From Cladophialophora immunda (lineage: Eukaryota > Ascomycota > Eurotiomycetes > Chaetothyriales > Herpotrichiellaceae): a stretch of DNA of 64,000 nucleotides. The notes below the pieces were generated by a model. It saw only the letters and a program-made list of their open reading frames with translations, was not told the DNA's origin and did no database searches. The stretch covers positions 1 through 64,000 of the forward strand of contig NW_015622545.1 of assembly GCF_000835495.1 (NCBI RefSeq). Direction: 5' to 3'. Positions 11,512 through 19,381 of the stretch are shown here, one piece after another. Position numbers and translations under genes: made by a program. Numbering within the stretch: position 1 is the stretch's first letter; each line of letters begins with the position of its first letter.

Positions 11512-13161
11512 TCAGTTTGCCCAGCCCTTGCTCATCTCCACGGCCTTCTGCCATCGCGCAAACTGCTGGTCACTCTCCTGCTTGCTCATGGCAGGCTTGA
11601 AGACCGAGGAGCCCTCGATGTTGACATCCTTCAACTCGTCAATGCTGTCCCAGACACCAACAGCCAAACCAGCTGCGATCGCTGCGCCCAGGGCTGTGGT
11701 CTCGCGCATCGCGGGTCTCTTAACGGGGATGCCAATGAGGTCGGATTGCGTCTGCATGCACAAATCCGAGTTGCACATGCCGCCGTCGACGGCTAGTTCG
11801 CTAAGTTTGTGGCCCGAATCCTTTTCCATAGCCACCAGGATGGCTTTGGTTTGGAAGCACGTCGCTTCCAATGTTGCGCGAGCGATGTGCCCACGCTTCG
11901 TGTAAGCTGTGATACCGAAGATGGTTCCGCGAGCGTCGTCAATCCAATAGGGCGCAAAGAGGCCGCTAAATGCAGTCACGAATGTGACACCACCGTTGTC
12001 CTCGACAGTCTCGGCCAGTTGGCTGATCTCCGAGGATTTGTCGATGAATCCAAAGTTGTCAACAAGGAATTTGACGCTCGAGCCGGCCACTGCAATGGAC
12101 CCTTCAAGCGCGTACATGGGCTTGGTATTGCCACCGAAATCAAACGCCACGGTGGTCAAGAGGCCGTGGGTGGAAATAACGGGCTTGTCGCCCACGTTGT
12201 AAAGGATAAAGCTACCAGTTCCATACGTGTTCTTGCCGAGGCCTGGTGTGAAGCCCTTCTGACCGACCAGAGCAGCCGACTGATCTCCTAAACAGCCAGT
12301 GATTGGGACACCCTTAAGGACGGTTGAGGTGAGGGAGCCATATGCTGAGGAGTCGGAGGAATGGACGATCTTAGGGAGATGGATTTTTGAGGTGTCGATG
12401 CGGAAGAAGTCGAGAAGGGAGTCGTCGTACTCGAGGGTGTTCAGGTTCATGAACATCGTTCGCGATGCATTTGAAGGGTCAGAGACGAAGATGTTTCTCT
12501 TCGGGCCTTTGGTTCTCGACATCAGTACATGGTGGTTGCAAAGCCATCCAGAAATAGCTCACCTCCATTGAGTTTATACACAAGCCACGCATCGATTGTG
12601 CCAAAAGCCAGAACACCCTTCTCATAAGCATCTTTAACCTTGGGCTCGTTCTCGAGCAGCCAAAGCAACTTGCCCACTGAAGGATAGGTGGAAAGCGGAA
12701 GTCCGCAGATGTCAGTGAGCTTGTCAGCCCCGAGTCGGTGCTTCAGCTTTCGCACCAGAGCCTGTGTCCTTAGGTCGGTCCAGACTATGGCGTTGTACAG
12801 GGGCTCTCCGGTCTCCTTGTTCCATAGAACAGTGGTTTCACGCTGGTTGGTTATACCAACGGCCTTGATGGTGTTGATGTTGTGGCCTTGGTCTTGGAAT
12901 TGTTGGACTGCGCCATCGATACACTTCTCCACTGAGGAAACAATCTCCAGCGGGTCATGCTCATGCCAGCTGTGTTCTGCGGTTAGCACAGGAGTCCTGT
13001 CTTGAGGGAAACAGCACCACTCACCCAGGATGCGGGTAAATCTGCTTGAACTCAAGCTGGTGCGAGGCAACGGGCTCGCCTCGCTTGTTGAAGATCAGGA
13101 ACCTTGAACTGGTGGTTCCTTGATCGATGGAACCGACAAAGACTTCTTGAGTACTGCCCAT
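11512..13161 (-). CDS. GUT1: Glycerol kinase
   Basis: The model is complement(join(11512..12506, 12563..12969, 13025..13161)), 512 aa, normal for GlpK/Gut1. The enzyme phosphorylates glycerol to sn-glycerol-3-phosphate with ATP in the cytosol. Evidence includes the FGGY-kinase phosphate-1 motif (GSIDQGTTSSRFLIF), GITNQRETTVLW, the glycerol-site segment YNAIVWTDLRTQ, GCLGDQSAALVGQ, and the adenosine-site segment LAVDGGMCNSDLCMQTQSD. Two introns of 56 and 55 nt split the first third; the joins restore YPHPGWHEHD and LNGGPKRNIFVSD. It is divergent from the aquaglyceroporin across a 1.6-kb shared upstream region with a TATA box 130 bp before the ATG and candidate CreA sites, consistent with carbon-source control. 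Confidence 0.96.
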
Positions 13162-13290
13162 GGTGACCTTTCGCAGGAAATTCATAAAGTTTCAAAGATA
13201 TGTGAGCAAGTCTTGGGACCAATGTCTGGATCTGGGGATGGACTGGAACACTGGAGGCCTGGAGAGATTCTGTGGAGGGGAGGGGGCTGT

Positions 13291-13299
13291 GTTATATAG
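13291..13299 (-). promoter_or_regulatory. TATA box of GUT1
   Basis: CTATATAAC on the minus strand, 130 bp before the GUT1 ATG. It is identical to the element before the aquaglyceroporin. Confidence 0.6.
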
Positions 13300-15921: not shown

Positions 15922-17228
15922 TTCAGCACATGGTTGTTATTTTGGGTGCTCCAAGAGAAAGACTCTATACCGGGACGGCTACATTTGTACGGGTTTGGGG
16001 AGAGCCGTAAGCGCAGGCGTTGACCATTTCTGTACATATTTATCGAGGACAATGATGGCAGACCAATCAATTATGTTGAAGAAATGTATATTTCCTTCAA
16101 TTTATGGTGTTTCCTCCAAATGCAAACTGCGCTCTAGACATGGTAACTAATGTATGAGTCAACGTAGCTGCAAACTCATCTATTCATAATTCGAATTGTG
16201 ATAGACTCAGTCGATAGGCCCATCTGTGATTTATACATTGGCATTTTGCAGTCAACAGGTGCTGGGCTGGCATTTCAGGGGAACAACGTTATCTTCTGGA
16301 GGCTAACCAAGGTCTTTGGGGGTGGATACAGCATCTCTGGGAGATCTCGGATCATAGTACAGTGCTACAAGTGGCATGATCCATCTACATAAAACTGAGA
16401 AAGCCGCACGTCGTGTCTGCTGAGGAAAACGTCCTTCCTTCAGAGCGGAGATGGCCGAAGTTGGCCACATAAGAAGCACTGAATCGAGGACGTCCAAGCT
16501 GAGCGAATCAAACCATGTCAGCTGAGTCTCAAGTCGTCGATATCCATGGGCCGATCTCTCGGTACGTCGGTGGTGGCAAGATACGGCCGATGTCTTGTTC
16601 TTCAGGGACAAAGTTTTTTGTGCGGTTCCTGAGATCCATCCGCAATACGACGCTGGTGAAAAGGAAGGCGGCACAAATGCCCGATCGGGAAACCTGTATA
16701 AAGAGGTCTATTGCGCCCTGCTGTACCTCGGGGAACCAACCCCGACGCCTCAATTTCCGGAATCTAGTCGGAACAATCAGCCCGAGCCACTGCGTCCCTC
16801 ACTAATTTCTCCGCAATGGCCAAGGTTCCCTGCGTACGAGCCACAAAGTTCAATACTCAGCATCACGCGAGATGCCTAGCAGATCCGGGGTCGTCCAAAG
16901 CTCGTGTTGCGGGCTGGGCTCAGTTTGCCTCTCGAGCTCGGTCATGCAAATCCCCCGAGTGCAGTCAATGGCAGAAATGCGTCTCCGCCATGTTGCGTTC
17001 CCTCTCGACTGCTTGTCGATCCAGAGCCATTTACGACTCCTTCAAATATCGCAGCTGGCATCCTCCTTGACATAGCTCTATCACTCTGTTGATTGCCAGA
17101 GACTTCAGCTTGCTCACCTTCCCTACCGTATTGGTAACCTCGGGGTATTGCAAGTGTATGCTCACAAGGTCCTTGTTTCTCACCTGACGACCTCCTTGCC
17201 GGCCGCTACTCGGTGCACTCCTCCTACG
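15922..17228 (+). promoter_or_regulatory. Intergenic region and promoter of GUT2
   Basis: Holds the aquaglyceroporin 3' region and the GUT2 promoter. A CCGGGG CreA-type match lies near 16885. A 96-codon ATG-initiated frame at 16515-16805 has no recognisable features. No TATA box as clear as in the two neighbouring glycerol genes is seen. Confidence 0.45.
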
Positions 17229-19381
17229 ATGGCCTCCCGATTCTCCATGCGCCGGCTACTCAAGCCGTTGGCGTACGGCACAGGTCTGGCTGCGGCGGGT
17301 ACCGCAGGCATGTATATTATCTACCGTCCTCGAAACGTCCCGGGAGCAGAAACGCTCGCGCCGAAACCGCCCAGGAGAGACGAGCACGGAAACATCATCC
17401 CACCCAAGTTCCCCTACATCAAGACGAGAGCCGAACAGATTGCCGACCTCAAGAAATCCTCCTCGACGCCGTCCTCCGAGATTTACGACCTTCTCGTTAT
17501 TGGCGGCGGAGCTACGGGCACAGGCATCGCCCTCGATGCAGCCACCAGAGGCTTGAAAGTGGCAATCGTGGAAAGAGACGATTTCAGCAGCGGTACAAGC
17601 AGCAAATCCACCAAACTTGTCCATGGCGGAGTTCGATATCTCGAAAAAGCAGTGTGGAATCTGGACTACAATCAATACCAGCTTGTCAGAGAGGCTTTGA
17701 GAGAGCGAAAGAGTTTCCTGTACACGGCGCCGCATCTGTCGTCCTGGCTACCGATTATGCTGCCCCTGCAGGCGTGGTGGCAGGCACCATACTTCTGGGC
17801 GGGAACCAAATTCTACGATTTCCTGGCTGGCTCGGAGGGAATCGAAAGCTCTTACTTTCTACCTAGAAGCAAGGCTCTAGAAGCATTTCCCATGCTGAAG
17901 AAGGAGAATCTCATCGGTGCTCTCGTGTACTACGATGGCCAGCACAACGATTCAAGGATGAATATTTCCCTGGCCATGACCGCGACATTGTACGGGGCCA
18001 CGACAGTCAACCATTTGGAAGTGACAGGCCTGGAGAAGGATGCGAACGGCAAATTGACGGGTGCCAAGGTACGAGATCTGATTGCAGACAAGGATGGAAA
18101 ACGCAACGGCGAAGAGTTTGTTGTCAAAGCGAAAGGCATCATCAACGCGACAGGACCATTTTCCGACGCCATCCGGCAAATGGACTCTCCCAGTGACAAG
18201 GAGATTGTTGCACCGAGCTTGGGTGTGCATGTTGTTCTGCCCGGATACCTCAGTCCTGAAAATATGGGCCTCATCGACCCCTCTACATCTGATGGGCGTG
18301 TCATTTTCTTCCTCCCATGGCAAGGTAATACCATCGCCGGGACGACAGACGCTCCTTGTGCCATCTCCCAGAACCCAGTGGCTGGAGAGAAAGATATTGA
18401 ATGGATATTGAACGAGATTCGGACGTATCTTACTCCAGACATTGACGTCCGGAGGTCGGACATTCTTGCCGCCTGGTCAGGTGAGTTTTCCTTGATTTTT
18501 GTGAAGTGAAAATCTATACTGACACTCGTCGTCTAGGTATACGTCCCCTTGTCCGTGATCCCAACTCGAGAAAGACGGAATCGCTTGTCCGGAGCCATCT
18601 TGTTACTGTCTCAGACTCAGGGCTGCTGACCTGCGCCGGTGGCAAATGGACGACATACCGACAAATGGCTGAGGATGCGGTTGATAAAGCGATTGAAACA
18701 TTCAAGCTACAACCGAAGCCAACCGCCTACGTTCCGGACATCAGCGGTGTCAATGGGATTGATCCTTCGGTTGGACTTCTCAATGGAACGTGTCAAACGC
18801 ATCATATCCGACTAATTGGAGCTCACGGGTACTCGACAACTCTTTTCATCAACCTTATCCAGCATTTTGGCCTCGACCCAGATGTTGCCAAGCATTTGGC
18901 CAGCGACTACGGCGACCGAGCCTGGGATGTTGCGGCGCTGGCTTCTCCCACCGACAACACCGAACACTATCCCCTTCGTGGTCAGCGACTATCATCGTTG
19001 TATCCATTCATTGACGGTGAGGTCCGCTATGCCGTGCGCAGCGAATACGCGCAAACCGCAGTCGATGTCCTCGCAAGACGTACCAGATTGAGTTTCCTGA
19101 ATGCACAGGCAGCGTTACATGCTCTGCCCAAAGTGATTGACATCATGGCTGAAGAATTGAAGTGGAGTGAGAAGAGAAAGCAGGCGGAGTGGAAAGATAC
19201 TGTTGCGTTTTTGGCCAGCATGGGATTGCCTAGCGATATGCTCCAGATCACCCGTGAACAGGTCTTGCAGGGAGAAGTGCCTTCGCGGATTCTCGCGCCC
19301 TTGAAAGGTAGCTCAGCAGGTCCTGTGCCTCTGAGACCGACGCTTGAGCCTGCATCGGAGGCACACGGGCCTTTACCATGA
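17229..19381 (+). CDS. GUT2: Mitochondrial FAD-dependent glycerol-3-phosphate dehydrogenase
   Basis: The model is join(17229..18480, 18537..19381), 698 aa. The enzyme oxidises glycerol-3-phosphate to dihydroxyacetone phosphate on the outer face of the inner mitochondrial membrane and passes electrons to ubiquinone. The N-terminus (MASRFSMRRLLKPLAYGTG) is Arg-rich with no acidic residues and runs into a hydrophobic stretch, as expected for a presequence plus membrane anchor. DLLVIGGGATGTGIALDAATRG is the FAD site, followed by VERDDFSSGTSSKSTKLVHGGVRYLE; LLTCAGGKWTTYRQMAEDAVD follows the intron. No EF-hand extension is present, as in yeast Gut2. The 56-nt intron joins S-G-IRPL in frame. It lies directly downstream of the aquaglyceroporin on the same strand and completes the glycerol-to-DHAP route started by GUT1. 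Confidence 0.96.

What the first reader, a model, noticed from the sequence alone, without database searches (positions are those of the whole stretch)
11512..19381. A fungal glycerol-catabolism gene cluster equivalent to bacterial glpFKD
Glycerol kinase, aquaglyceroporin and mitochondrial FAD glycerol-3-phosphate dehydrogenase are consecutive with no other gene between them. Together they do the whole job of uptake, phosphorylation and oxidation to DHAP. In yeast GUT1, GUT2 and FPS1 are unlinked. The three genes here have introns and fungal targeting signals, so this is not a bacterial operon transfer but clustering of eukaryotic genes. I do not know whether this linkage has been reported.
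Basis: partly seen in the sequence, partly recalled or inferred. Interest (0 to 1): 0.85.

Follow-up and report, generated by a model that had tools for sequence, protein, structure and literature searches.

The report
Conserved fungal glycerol-use gene cluster
In a black fungus the genes to take up, trap and burn glycerol sit side by side, and two of them also lie together in distantly related fungi, so this looks like a real pathway cluster, although further copies of all three genes lie elsewhere in the genome.

Summary
Intact, intron-bearing genes for glycerol kinase (13161-11512, minus), an AQP3/GlpF-type aquaglyceroporin (14780-15921, plus) and FAD glycerol-3-phosphate dehydrogenase (17229-19381, plus) are consecutive. 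The genome is Cladophialophora immunda.

Kinase and channel form a divergent pair; a second such pair (scaffold C3, about 80% identical) has no dehydrogenase beside it. In the homologue lists 10 of 21 species named for both genes share a contig, in Eurotiomycetes, Leotiomycetes and Sordariomycetes, two with neighbouring locus tags. Orientation there is unknown. In Trichophyton rubrum the tags are consecutive and both genes fall together in one published table.

The linked dehydrogenase is a second GUT2 paralogue. Its named relatives are all Herpotrichiellaceae; in five species it shares a contig with the matching kinase or channel. The GUT2 that groups with other fungi is unlinked, on C1.

So this is a two-gene core plus a recruited GUT2 paralogue, not the only genes of the pathway. 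Ten paper searches found no description. Joint control of all three genes is untested, and one black-yeast dataset does not support it.

The parts
11512..13161 (-). Glycerol kinase (GUT1/GlpK family), 512 aa, exons 13161-13025, 12969-12563, 12506-11512
   Evidence: FGGY_N and FGGY_C over cut-off; spliced model; 97% identical Fonsecaea orthologue P0121 passes the GlpK equivalog TIGR01311, 679 against 590 bits
13162..14779 (.). Divergent intergenic region between kinase and channel, 1618 bp (1570 bp if the channel starts at 14732)
   Evidence: No ORF with a Pfam match over cut-off; motif scan not decisive
14780..15921 (+). Aquaglyceroporin (MIP family), 340 aa, exons 14780-15084, 15142-15682, 15745-15921
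   Evidence: MIP over cut-off; identical to C. immunda PV07_08390 over the query; TIGR00861 211 against 171 bits on P0001; best solved relatives AQP3, AQP10, AQP7, GlpF
15922..17228 (.). Intergenic region between channel and dehydrogenase, 1307 bp
   Evidence: No ORF with a Pfam match over cut-off
17229..19381 (+). FAD glycerol-3-phosphate dehydrogenase (GUT2 paralogue), 698 aa, exons 17229-18480, 18537-19381; the N-terminus reads as a basic leader plus a hydrophobic stretch (by eye, not predicted)
   Evidence: DAO and DAO_C over cut-off; separate clade from the C1 copy; solved relatives are glycerol-3-phosphate dehydrogenases and oxidases

Best explanation
A fungal gene cluster for using glycerol, built in two layers. 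Layer 1 is a channel-kinase pair. The channel lets glycerol equilibrate, so net uptake depends on the kinase trapping it as glycerol-3-phosphate; keeping the two genes together makes joint control useful. Layer 2, among named species seen only in Herpotrichiellaceae, is a second GUT2 paralogue beside the channel. It oxidises glycerol-3-phosphate to DHAP at the mitochondrial inner membrane and passes electrons to quinone. Shown: gene families, order, integrity, a second copy of the pair in the same genome, recurrence of co-location, and a distinct GUT2 clade. Inferred: joint induction by glycerol, mitochondrial location, and a division of labour in which the linked copies serve catabolism and the C1 GUT2 the housekeeping shuttle.
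For: Families. Co-location of channel and kinase: 11 contig-length matches, covering 10 of 21 species named in both lists; four of the contigs are under 200 kb; neighbouring tags in Phialemonium and Cosmosporella (taxonomy). Dehydrogenase: shares a contig with the window-type kinase in 4 of 7 species (E. bonariae tags two apart) and with the window-type channel in R. mackenziei (consecutive tags) and E. dermatitidis. Paralogue types agree in 4 of 4 Herpotrichiellaceae kinase-channel matches and in all 6 dehydrogenase matches of that family. T. rubrum TERG_01900 channel -3.25 and TERG_01901 kinase -2.44 log2 in one RNA-seq table (PMC6963840, passages).
Against: Of 21 species named for channel and kinase, 11 show no shared contig; for some this is explained by mixed assemblies or by different paralogue types, but C. 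europaea, E. aquamarina, E. sideris and E. xenobiotica are unexplained. Orientation in other species was not seen. In E. dermatitidis a kinase falls while three aquaglyceroporins rise under radiation, with distant ORF numbers (PMC3490873, passages). Two other T. rubrum papers list the kinase but not the channel in the text. No shared promoter motif stood out. The gap is longer than the mean of 1343 nt that PMC2871058 (passages) gives for divergent fungal genes.
Confidence: 0.6

Rival explanations
1. Osmolyte recycling rather than carbon catabolism: the linked genes recover or dispose of glycerol made as compatible solute under osmotic or drying stress.
For: Black fungi are stress-tolerant and glycerol is a common fungal osmolyte (recalled). 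Aquaglyceroporins of E. dermatitidis change under radiation while a kinase moves the other way (PMC3490873, passages).
Against: The kinase plus FAD dehydrogenase set is the catabolic route. The channel is nearest to AQP3/GlpF-type facilitators.
Confidence: 0.2
2. Only the kinase-channel pair is a functional unit. The GUT2 paralogue is a neighbour by history, kept nearby without joint control.
For: The pair occurs without GUT2 on C3. In Rhynchosporium channel and GUT2 tags are 863 apart on one contig, and in Clarireedia they are on different contigs.
Against: In five Herpotrichiellaceae species the linked-type GUT2 shares a contig with the window-type kinase or channel, with near tags in two; it was never seen with the C3 type.
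Confidence: 0.15
3. Chance adjacency of members of multi-copy families.
For: The genome has MIP matches at 12 places and kinase matches at three.
Against: Recurrence across classes, on small contigs and with neighbouring tags, and a second divergent pair in the same genome.
Confidence: 0.03
4. A bacterial glp operon acquired by horizontal transfer.
For: The same three steps as glpFKD.
Against: Introns, with positions shared among the kinase copies and among the channel copies; fungal names among the listed homologues; the dehydrogenase orthologue P0241 fails the bacterial GlpD equivalogs (263 against 360 bits); mixed gene orientation.
Confidence: 0.01

Closest known systems
Bacterial glpFK and glpD glycerol operons (recalled)
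   Same: Facilitator, kinase and FAD glycerol-3-phosphate dehydrogenase encoded together; same protein families
   Different: Separate intron-bearing genes, kinase divergent, fungal descent; further copies elsewhere
Yeast GUT1 and GUT2 (recalled)
   Same: Same enzyme families and pathway
   Different: Unlinked in yeast (recalled); here linked, and the linked GUT2 is a second paralogue
Fungal nutrient-use clusters such as GAL or allantoin (PMC4347624, abstract start in listings)
   Same: Neighbouring non-homologous genes of one nutrient pathway, recurring in relatives
   Different: Different nutrient; the conserved core is only two genes; joint control unproven
Conserved divergent gene pairs of fungi (PMC2871058, passages)
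   Same: Divergent, functionally related pair
   Different: Gap of about 1.6 kb here against a reported mean of 1343 nt; 'glycerol' and 'aquaporin' do not occur in that paper's main text

Membership tests
Glycerol kinase (GlpK/GUT1) | FGGY_N and FGGY_C domains; GlpK equivalog score | tested here: met
   Domains on window exons; TIGR01311 met by the 97% identical orthologue P0121; the full-length window protein itself was not scanned
Aquaglyceroporin | MIP fold family and glycerol-type pore residues | tested here: met
   MIP over cut-off. In the alignment to AQP3 the region before the first NPA has W against AQP3 F, and GY.N.ARD is kept, with NLA in place of NPA (which residues form the filter is recalled)
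Mitochondrial FAD glycerol-3-phosphate dehydrogenase (GUT2) | DAO plus DAO_C domains | tested here: met
   PF01266 and PF16901 over cut-off. Mitochondrial location not tested
GUT2 that groups with other Pezizomycotina orders | Groups with the GUT2 of the sister order in the tree | tested here: not met
   The C1 copy groups with Endocarpon (Verrucariales), 100/99; the window copy is in a separate clade. Forcing the window clade together with C1 and Endocarpon is rejected, AU p 7e-5 (group named after seeing the tree, no outgroup)
Bacterial glp operon | One direction of transcription, bacterial descent | tested here: not met
   Kinase on the other strand, introns
Fungal metabolic gene cluster | Neighbouring non-homologous genes of one pathway | tested here: met
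Fungal metabolic gene cluster | Linkage recurs in relatives | tested here: met
   Contig lengths and tags, 10 of 21 species for kinase and channel; orientation and exact distance not seen for most
Fungal metabolic gene cluster | Co-expression | tested here: inconclusive
   T. rubrum pair moves together in one table; E. dermatitidis does not support it; nothing for C. immunda

The most novel reading that the evidence does not exclude
Herpotrichiellaceae black fungi assembled a eukaryotic counterpart of glpFKD stepwise: a channel-kinase pair, widespread in Pezizomycotina, took in an old GUT2 paralogue that is otherwise lost or unsampled, giving a dedicated glycerol-burning module beside the housekeeping GUT2, and the core pair was also copied as a unit.
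Probability: 0.45. Interest if true: 0.65.

Novelty: new member of a known kind. Interest (0 to 1): 0.5.

Why it matters
It would add glycerol to the nutrients with a conserved gene cluster in filamentous fungi. The likely steps are still visible inside one genome: the pair with GUT2, the pair without GUT2, and lone copies. It also gives a clean test of the co-regulation idea for eukaryotic clusters, because a passive channel and its trapping kinase have an obvious reason to be controlled together.

Tried and rejected
Promoter motifs: gapped CGG/CCG words, STRE, CreA-type, CCGN7CCG (recalled AcuK/AcuM site), CCAAT, GATA, TATA and shared 9-12-mers in six upstream regions. CCGN7CCG is 4 against 0.8 expected and CreA-type 16 against 9.0 in the divergent region, but 0 against 0.6 and 5 against 5.2 upstream of GUT2. 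Shared words are near expectation. With so many motifs tried, nothing is claimed.

A wider duplicated segment: DNA matches between the window and the C3 locus lie in the kinase and channel only. The MFS genes near both loci show no meaningful similarity. The zinc-cluster regulators are weakly alike (24% over 157 aa, E 2e-6), which family resemblance can explain.

One clade for both Chaetothyriales kinase types is not rejected (p 0.16 and 0.15). A Chaetothyriomycetidae-only origin of the linked GUT2 is rejected, with the caveats given.

Literature: ten searches gave no paper describing this cluster. The library holds open-licence PMC papers only, and most results were seen as listings. Passages were read in six papers.

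Gene order in other fungi could not be read directly because the collections reachable here hold no fungal genomes besides the window's own. Contig lengths and locus tags printed with the homologues were used instead. The lists show only the best 120 rows each.
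Full report
What is there. The window is the first 64 kb of scaffold C5 (4,609,732 bp) in a 42.2 Mb, 39-contig genome. The channel matches C. immunda PV07_08390 at 100% over the query, and that record's longest contig has the same length, so the genome is Cladophialophora immunda (Chaetothyriales, Herpotrichiellaceae). Spliced models give a 512-aa glycerol kinase (minus), a 340-aa aquaglyceroporin (plus) and a 698-aa FAD glycerol-3-phosphate dehydrogenase (plus) without internal stops. Pfam supports each. NCBIfam supports kinase and channel; for full-length kinase and dehydrogenase it was run on the 97% and 96% identical Fonsecaea orthologues. 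The nearest solved relatives are glycerol kinases, AQP3, AQP10, AQP7 and GlpF, and bacterial glycerol-3-phosphate dehydrogenases and oxidases. Ten ORFs from the two gaps have no Pfam match over cut-off.

Copies elsewhere in the genome. Kinase matches fall at three places: the window, C3 near 4.727 Mb and C5 near 2.564 Mb. Dehydrogenase matches fall at two: the window and C1 near 6.537 Mb, 75% identical over its main exon. The MIP family matches at 12 places (20 matches); the nearest channels are on C3 and C4, 82% and 70% in their best exons. On C3 the kinase (minus, model 4728509-4726651) and channel (plus, from 4731178) are again divergent neighbours, with no dehydrogenase match there. DNA matches between the two loci lie in these two genes only. 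The three kinases share one intron position and phase. The window and C3 channels share two intron positions; the C4 channel shares the last and has its first within two residues. The two dehydrogenases share none.

Linkage in other fungi. Contig lengths and tags printed were compared, using 165 of 360 rows. Channel and kinase: 11 equal contig lengths. Of 21 species named in both lists, 10 share a contig: F. monophora, Capronia coronata, E. spinifera, Tricladium, Amylocarpus, Bisporella, Phialemonium, Pleurostoma, Helicocarpus and Cosmosporella. The eleventh match joins rows named F. pedrosoi and F. monophora. Four contigs are under 200 kb (43, 59, 121 and 172 kb). Tags are neighbouring in Phialemonium (9147/9148) and in Cosmosporella (105070/105080). 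These species lie in Eurotiomycetes (Onygenales and Chaetothyriales), Leotiomycetes and Sordariomycetes (the order or class of Bisporella, and of species not looked up, is recalled). No shared contig was found for 11 of the 21. In R. mackenziei, R. similis and E. oligosperma the listed kinase and channel belong to different paralogue types. E. dermatitidis, Ophidiomyces, Trichophyton tonsurans and Drepanopeziza probably mix assemblies. Cyphellophora europaea, E. aquamarina, E. sideris and E. xenobiotica are unexplained and may be real absences. The large contigs prove little singly: on an assumed 35 Mb genome a 4.4 Mb contig would be shared by chance in about 13% of cases.

Trees. Chaetothyriales kinases form a window type (14 rows, 100/97) and a C3 type (8 rows, 100/100). 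Channels show the same two groups with weaker support (88/97 and 80/57); the second also takes in two Dothideomycetes. In the four Herpotrichiellaceae kinase-channel matches both genes are of the same type. In all six dehydrogenase matches of that family the partner is of the window type. Joining both kinase types in one clade is not rejected, so a copy of the whole pair within this order is a fair reading. The window dehydrogenase sits in a 14-row clade (100/100) of 13 named rows plus the window, all of Herpotrichiellaceae genera (one species looked up per genus), with five unnamed environmental rows next to it. The C1 copy groups with Endocarpon (Verrucariales). Holding the window clade, the environmental rows, C1 and Endocarpon together is rejected (p 7e-5). 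So the linked GUT2 is probably an older paralogue, with two caveats: no outgroup, and the group was named after seeing the tree.

How it works. Glycerol enters passively through the channel, the kinase traps it, and the dehydrogenase oxidises glycerol-3-phosphate to DHAP (pathway recalled; families). The divergent arrangement offers joint control of channel and kinase. In T. rubrum TERG_01900 (aquaglyceroporin, log2 -3.25) and TERG_01901 (kinase, -2.44) fall together under terbinafine in keratinocyte co-culture (PMC6963840, passages); whether they are orthologues of the window genes was not tested. Two further T. rubrum papers list the kinase alone: -6.79 on keratin (PMC4797125, passages) and changes in a stuA mutant (PMC8218993, passages); TERG_01900 does not occur in their text. 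In E. dermatitidis a kinase falls (0.22 and 0.19) while three aquaglyceroporins rise under radiation (PMC3490873, passages). That does not support joint control, although which paralogues these are is unknown.

Verdict. It is a new member of a known kind, the fungal nutrient-use cluster, with fair comparative support and no functional proof.

Noticed in passing
L029:4152-6010 (minus) and L029:8679 to L030:75 (plus): Second divergent glycerol kinase-aquaglyceroporin pair of the same genome (C3), without a dehydrogenase beside it.
   Followed up: yes
window 28868-30736 and L034:1813-3918: Zinc-cluster/fungal_trans regulators lie near both pairs; they are only weakly alike, 24% over 157 aa. A shared regulator is possible but unproven.
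   Followed up: partly
window 9491-11153 and 20484-22456: Genes flanking the cluster: an FAD_binding_3 monooxygenase-like gene and an MFS transporter; no tie to glycerol seen.
   Followed up: no
window 1-300: The scaffold begins inside non-telomeric sequence; TTAGGG occurs once in the window (12371) and CCCTAA not at all.
   Followed up: no
proteins P0262, P0264, P0267, P0269, P0270: Unnamed environmental dehydrogenases are the nearest outside relatives of the linked GUT2 clade; their host fungi are unknown.
   Followed up: no
window 17229-19381 and C1:6536439-6538647: The two GUT2 paralogues share no intron position, unlike the kinase and channel copies.
   Followed up: partly
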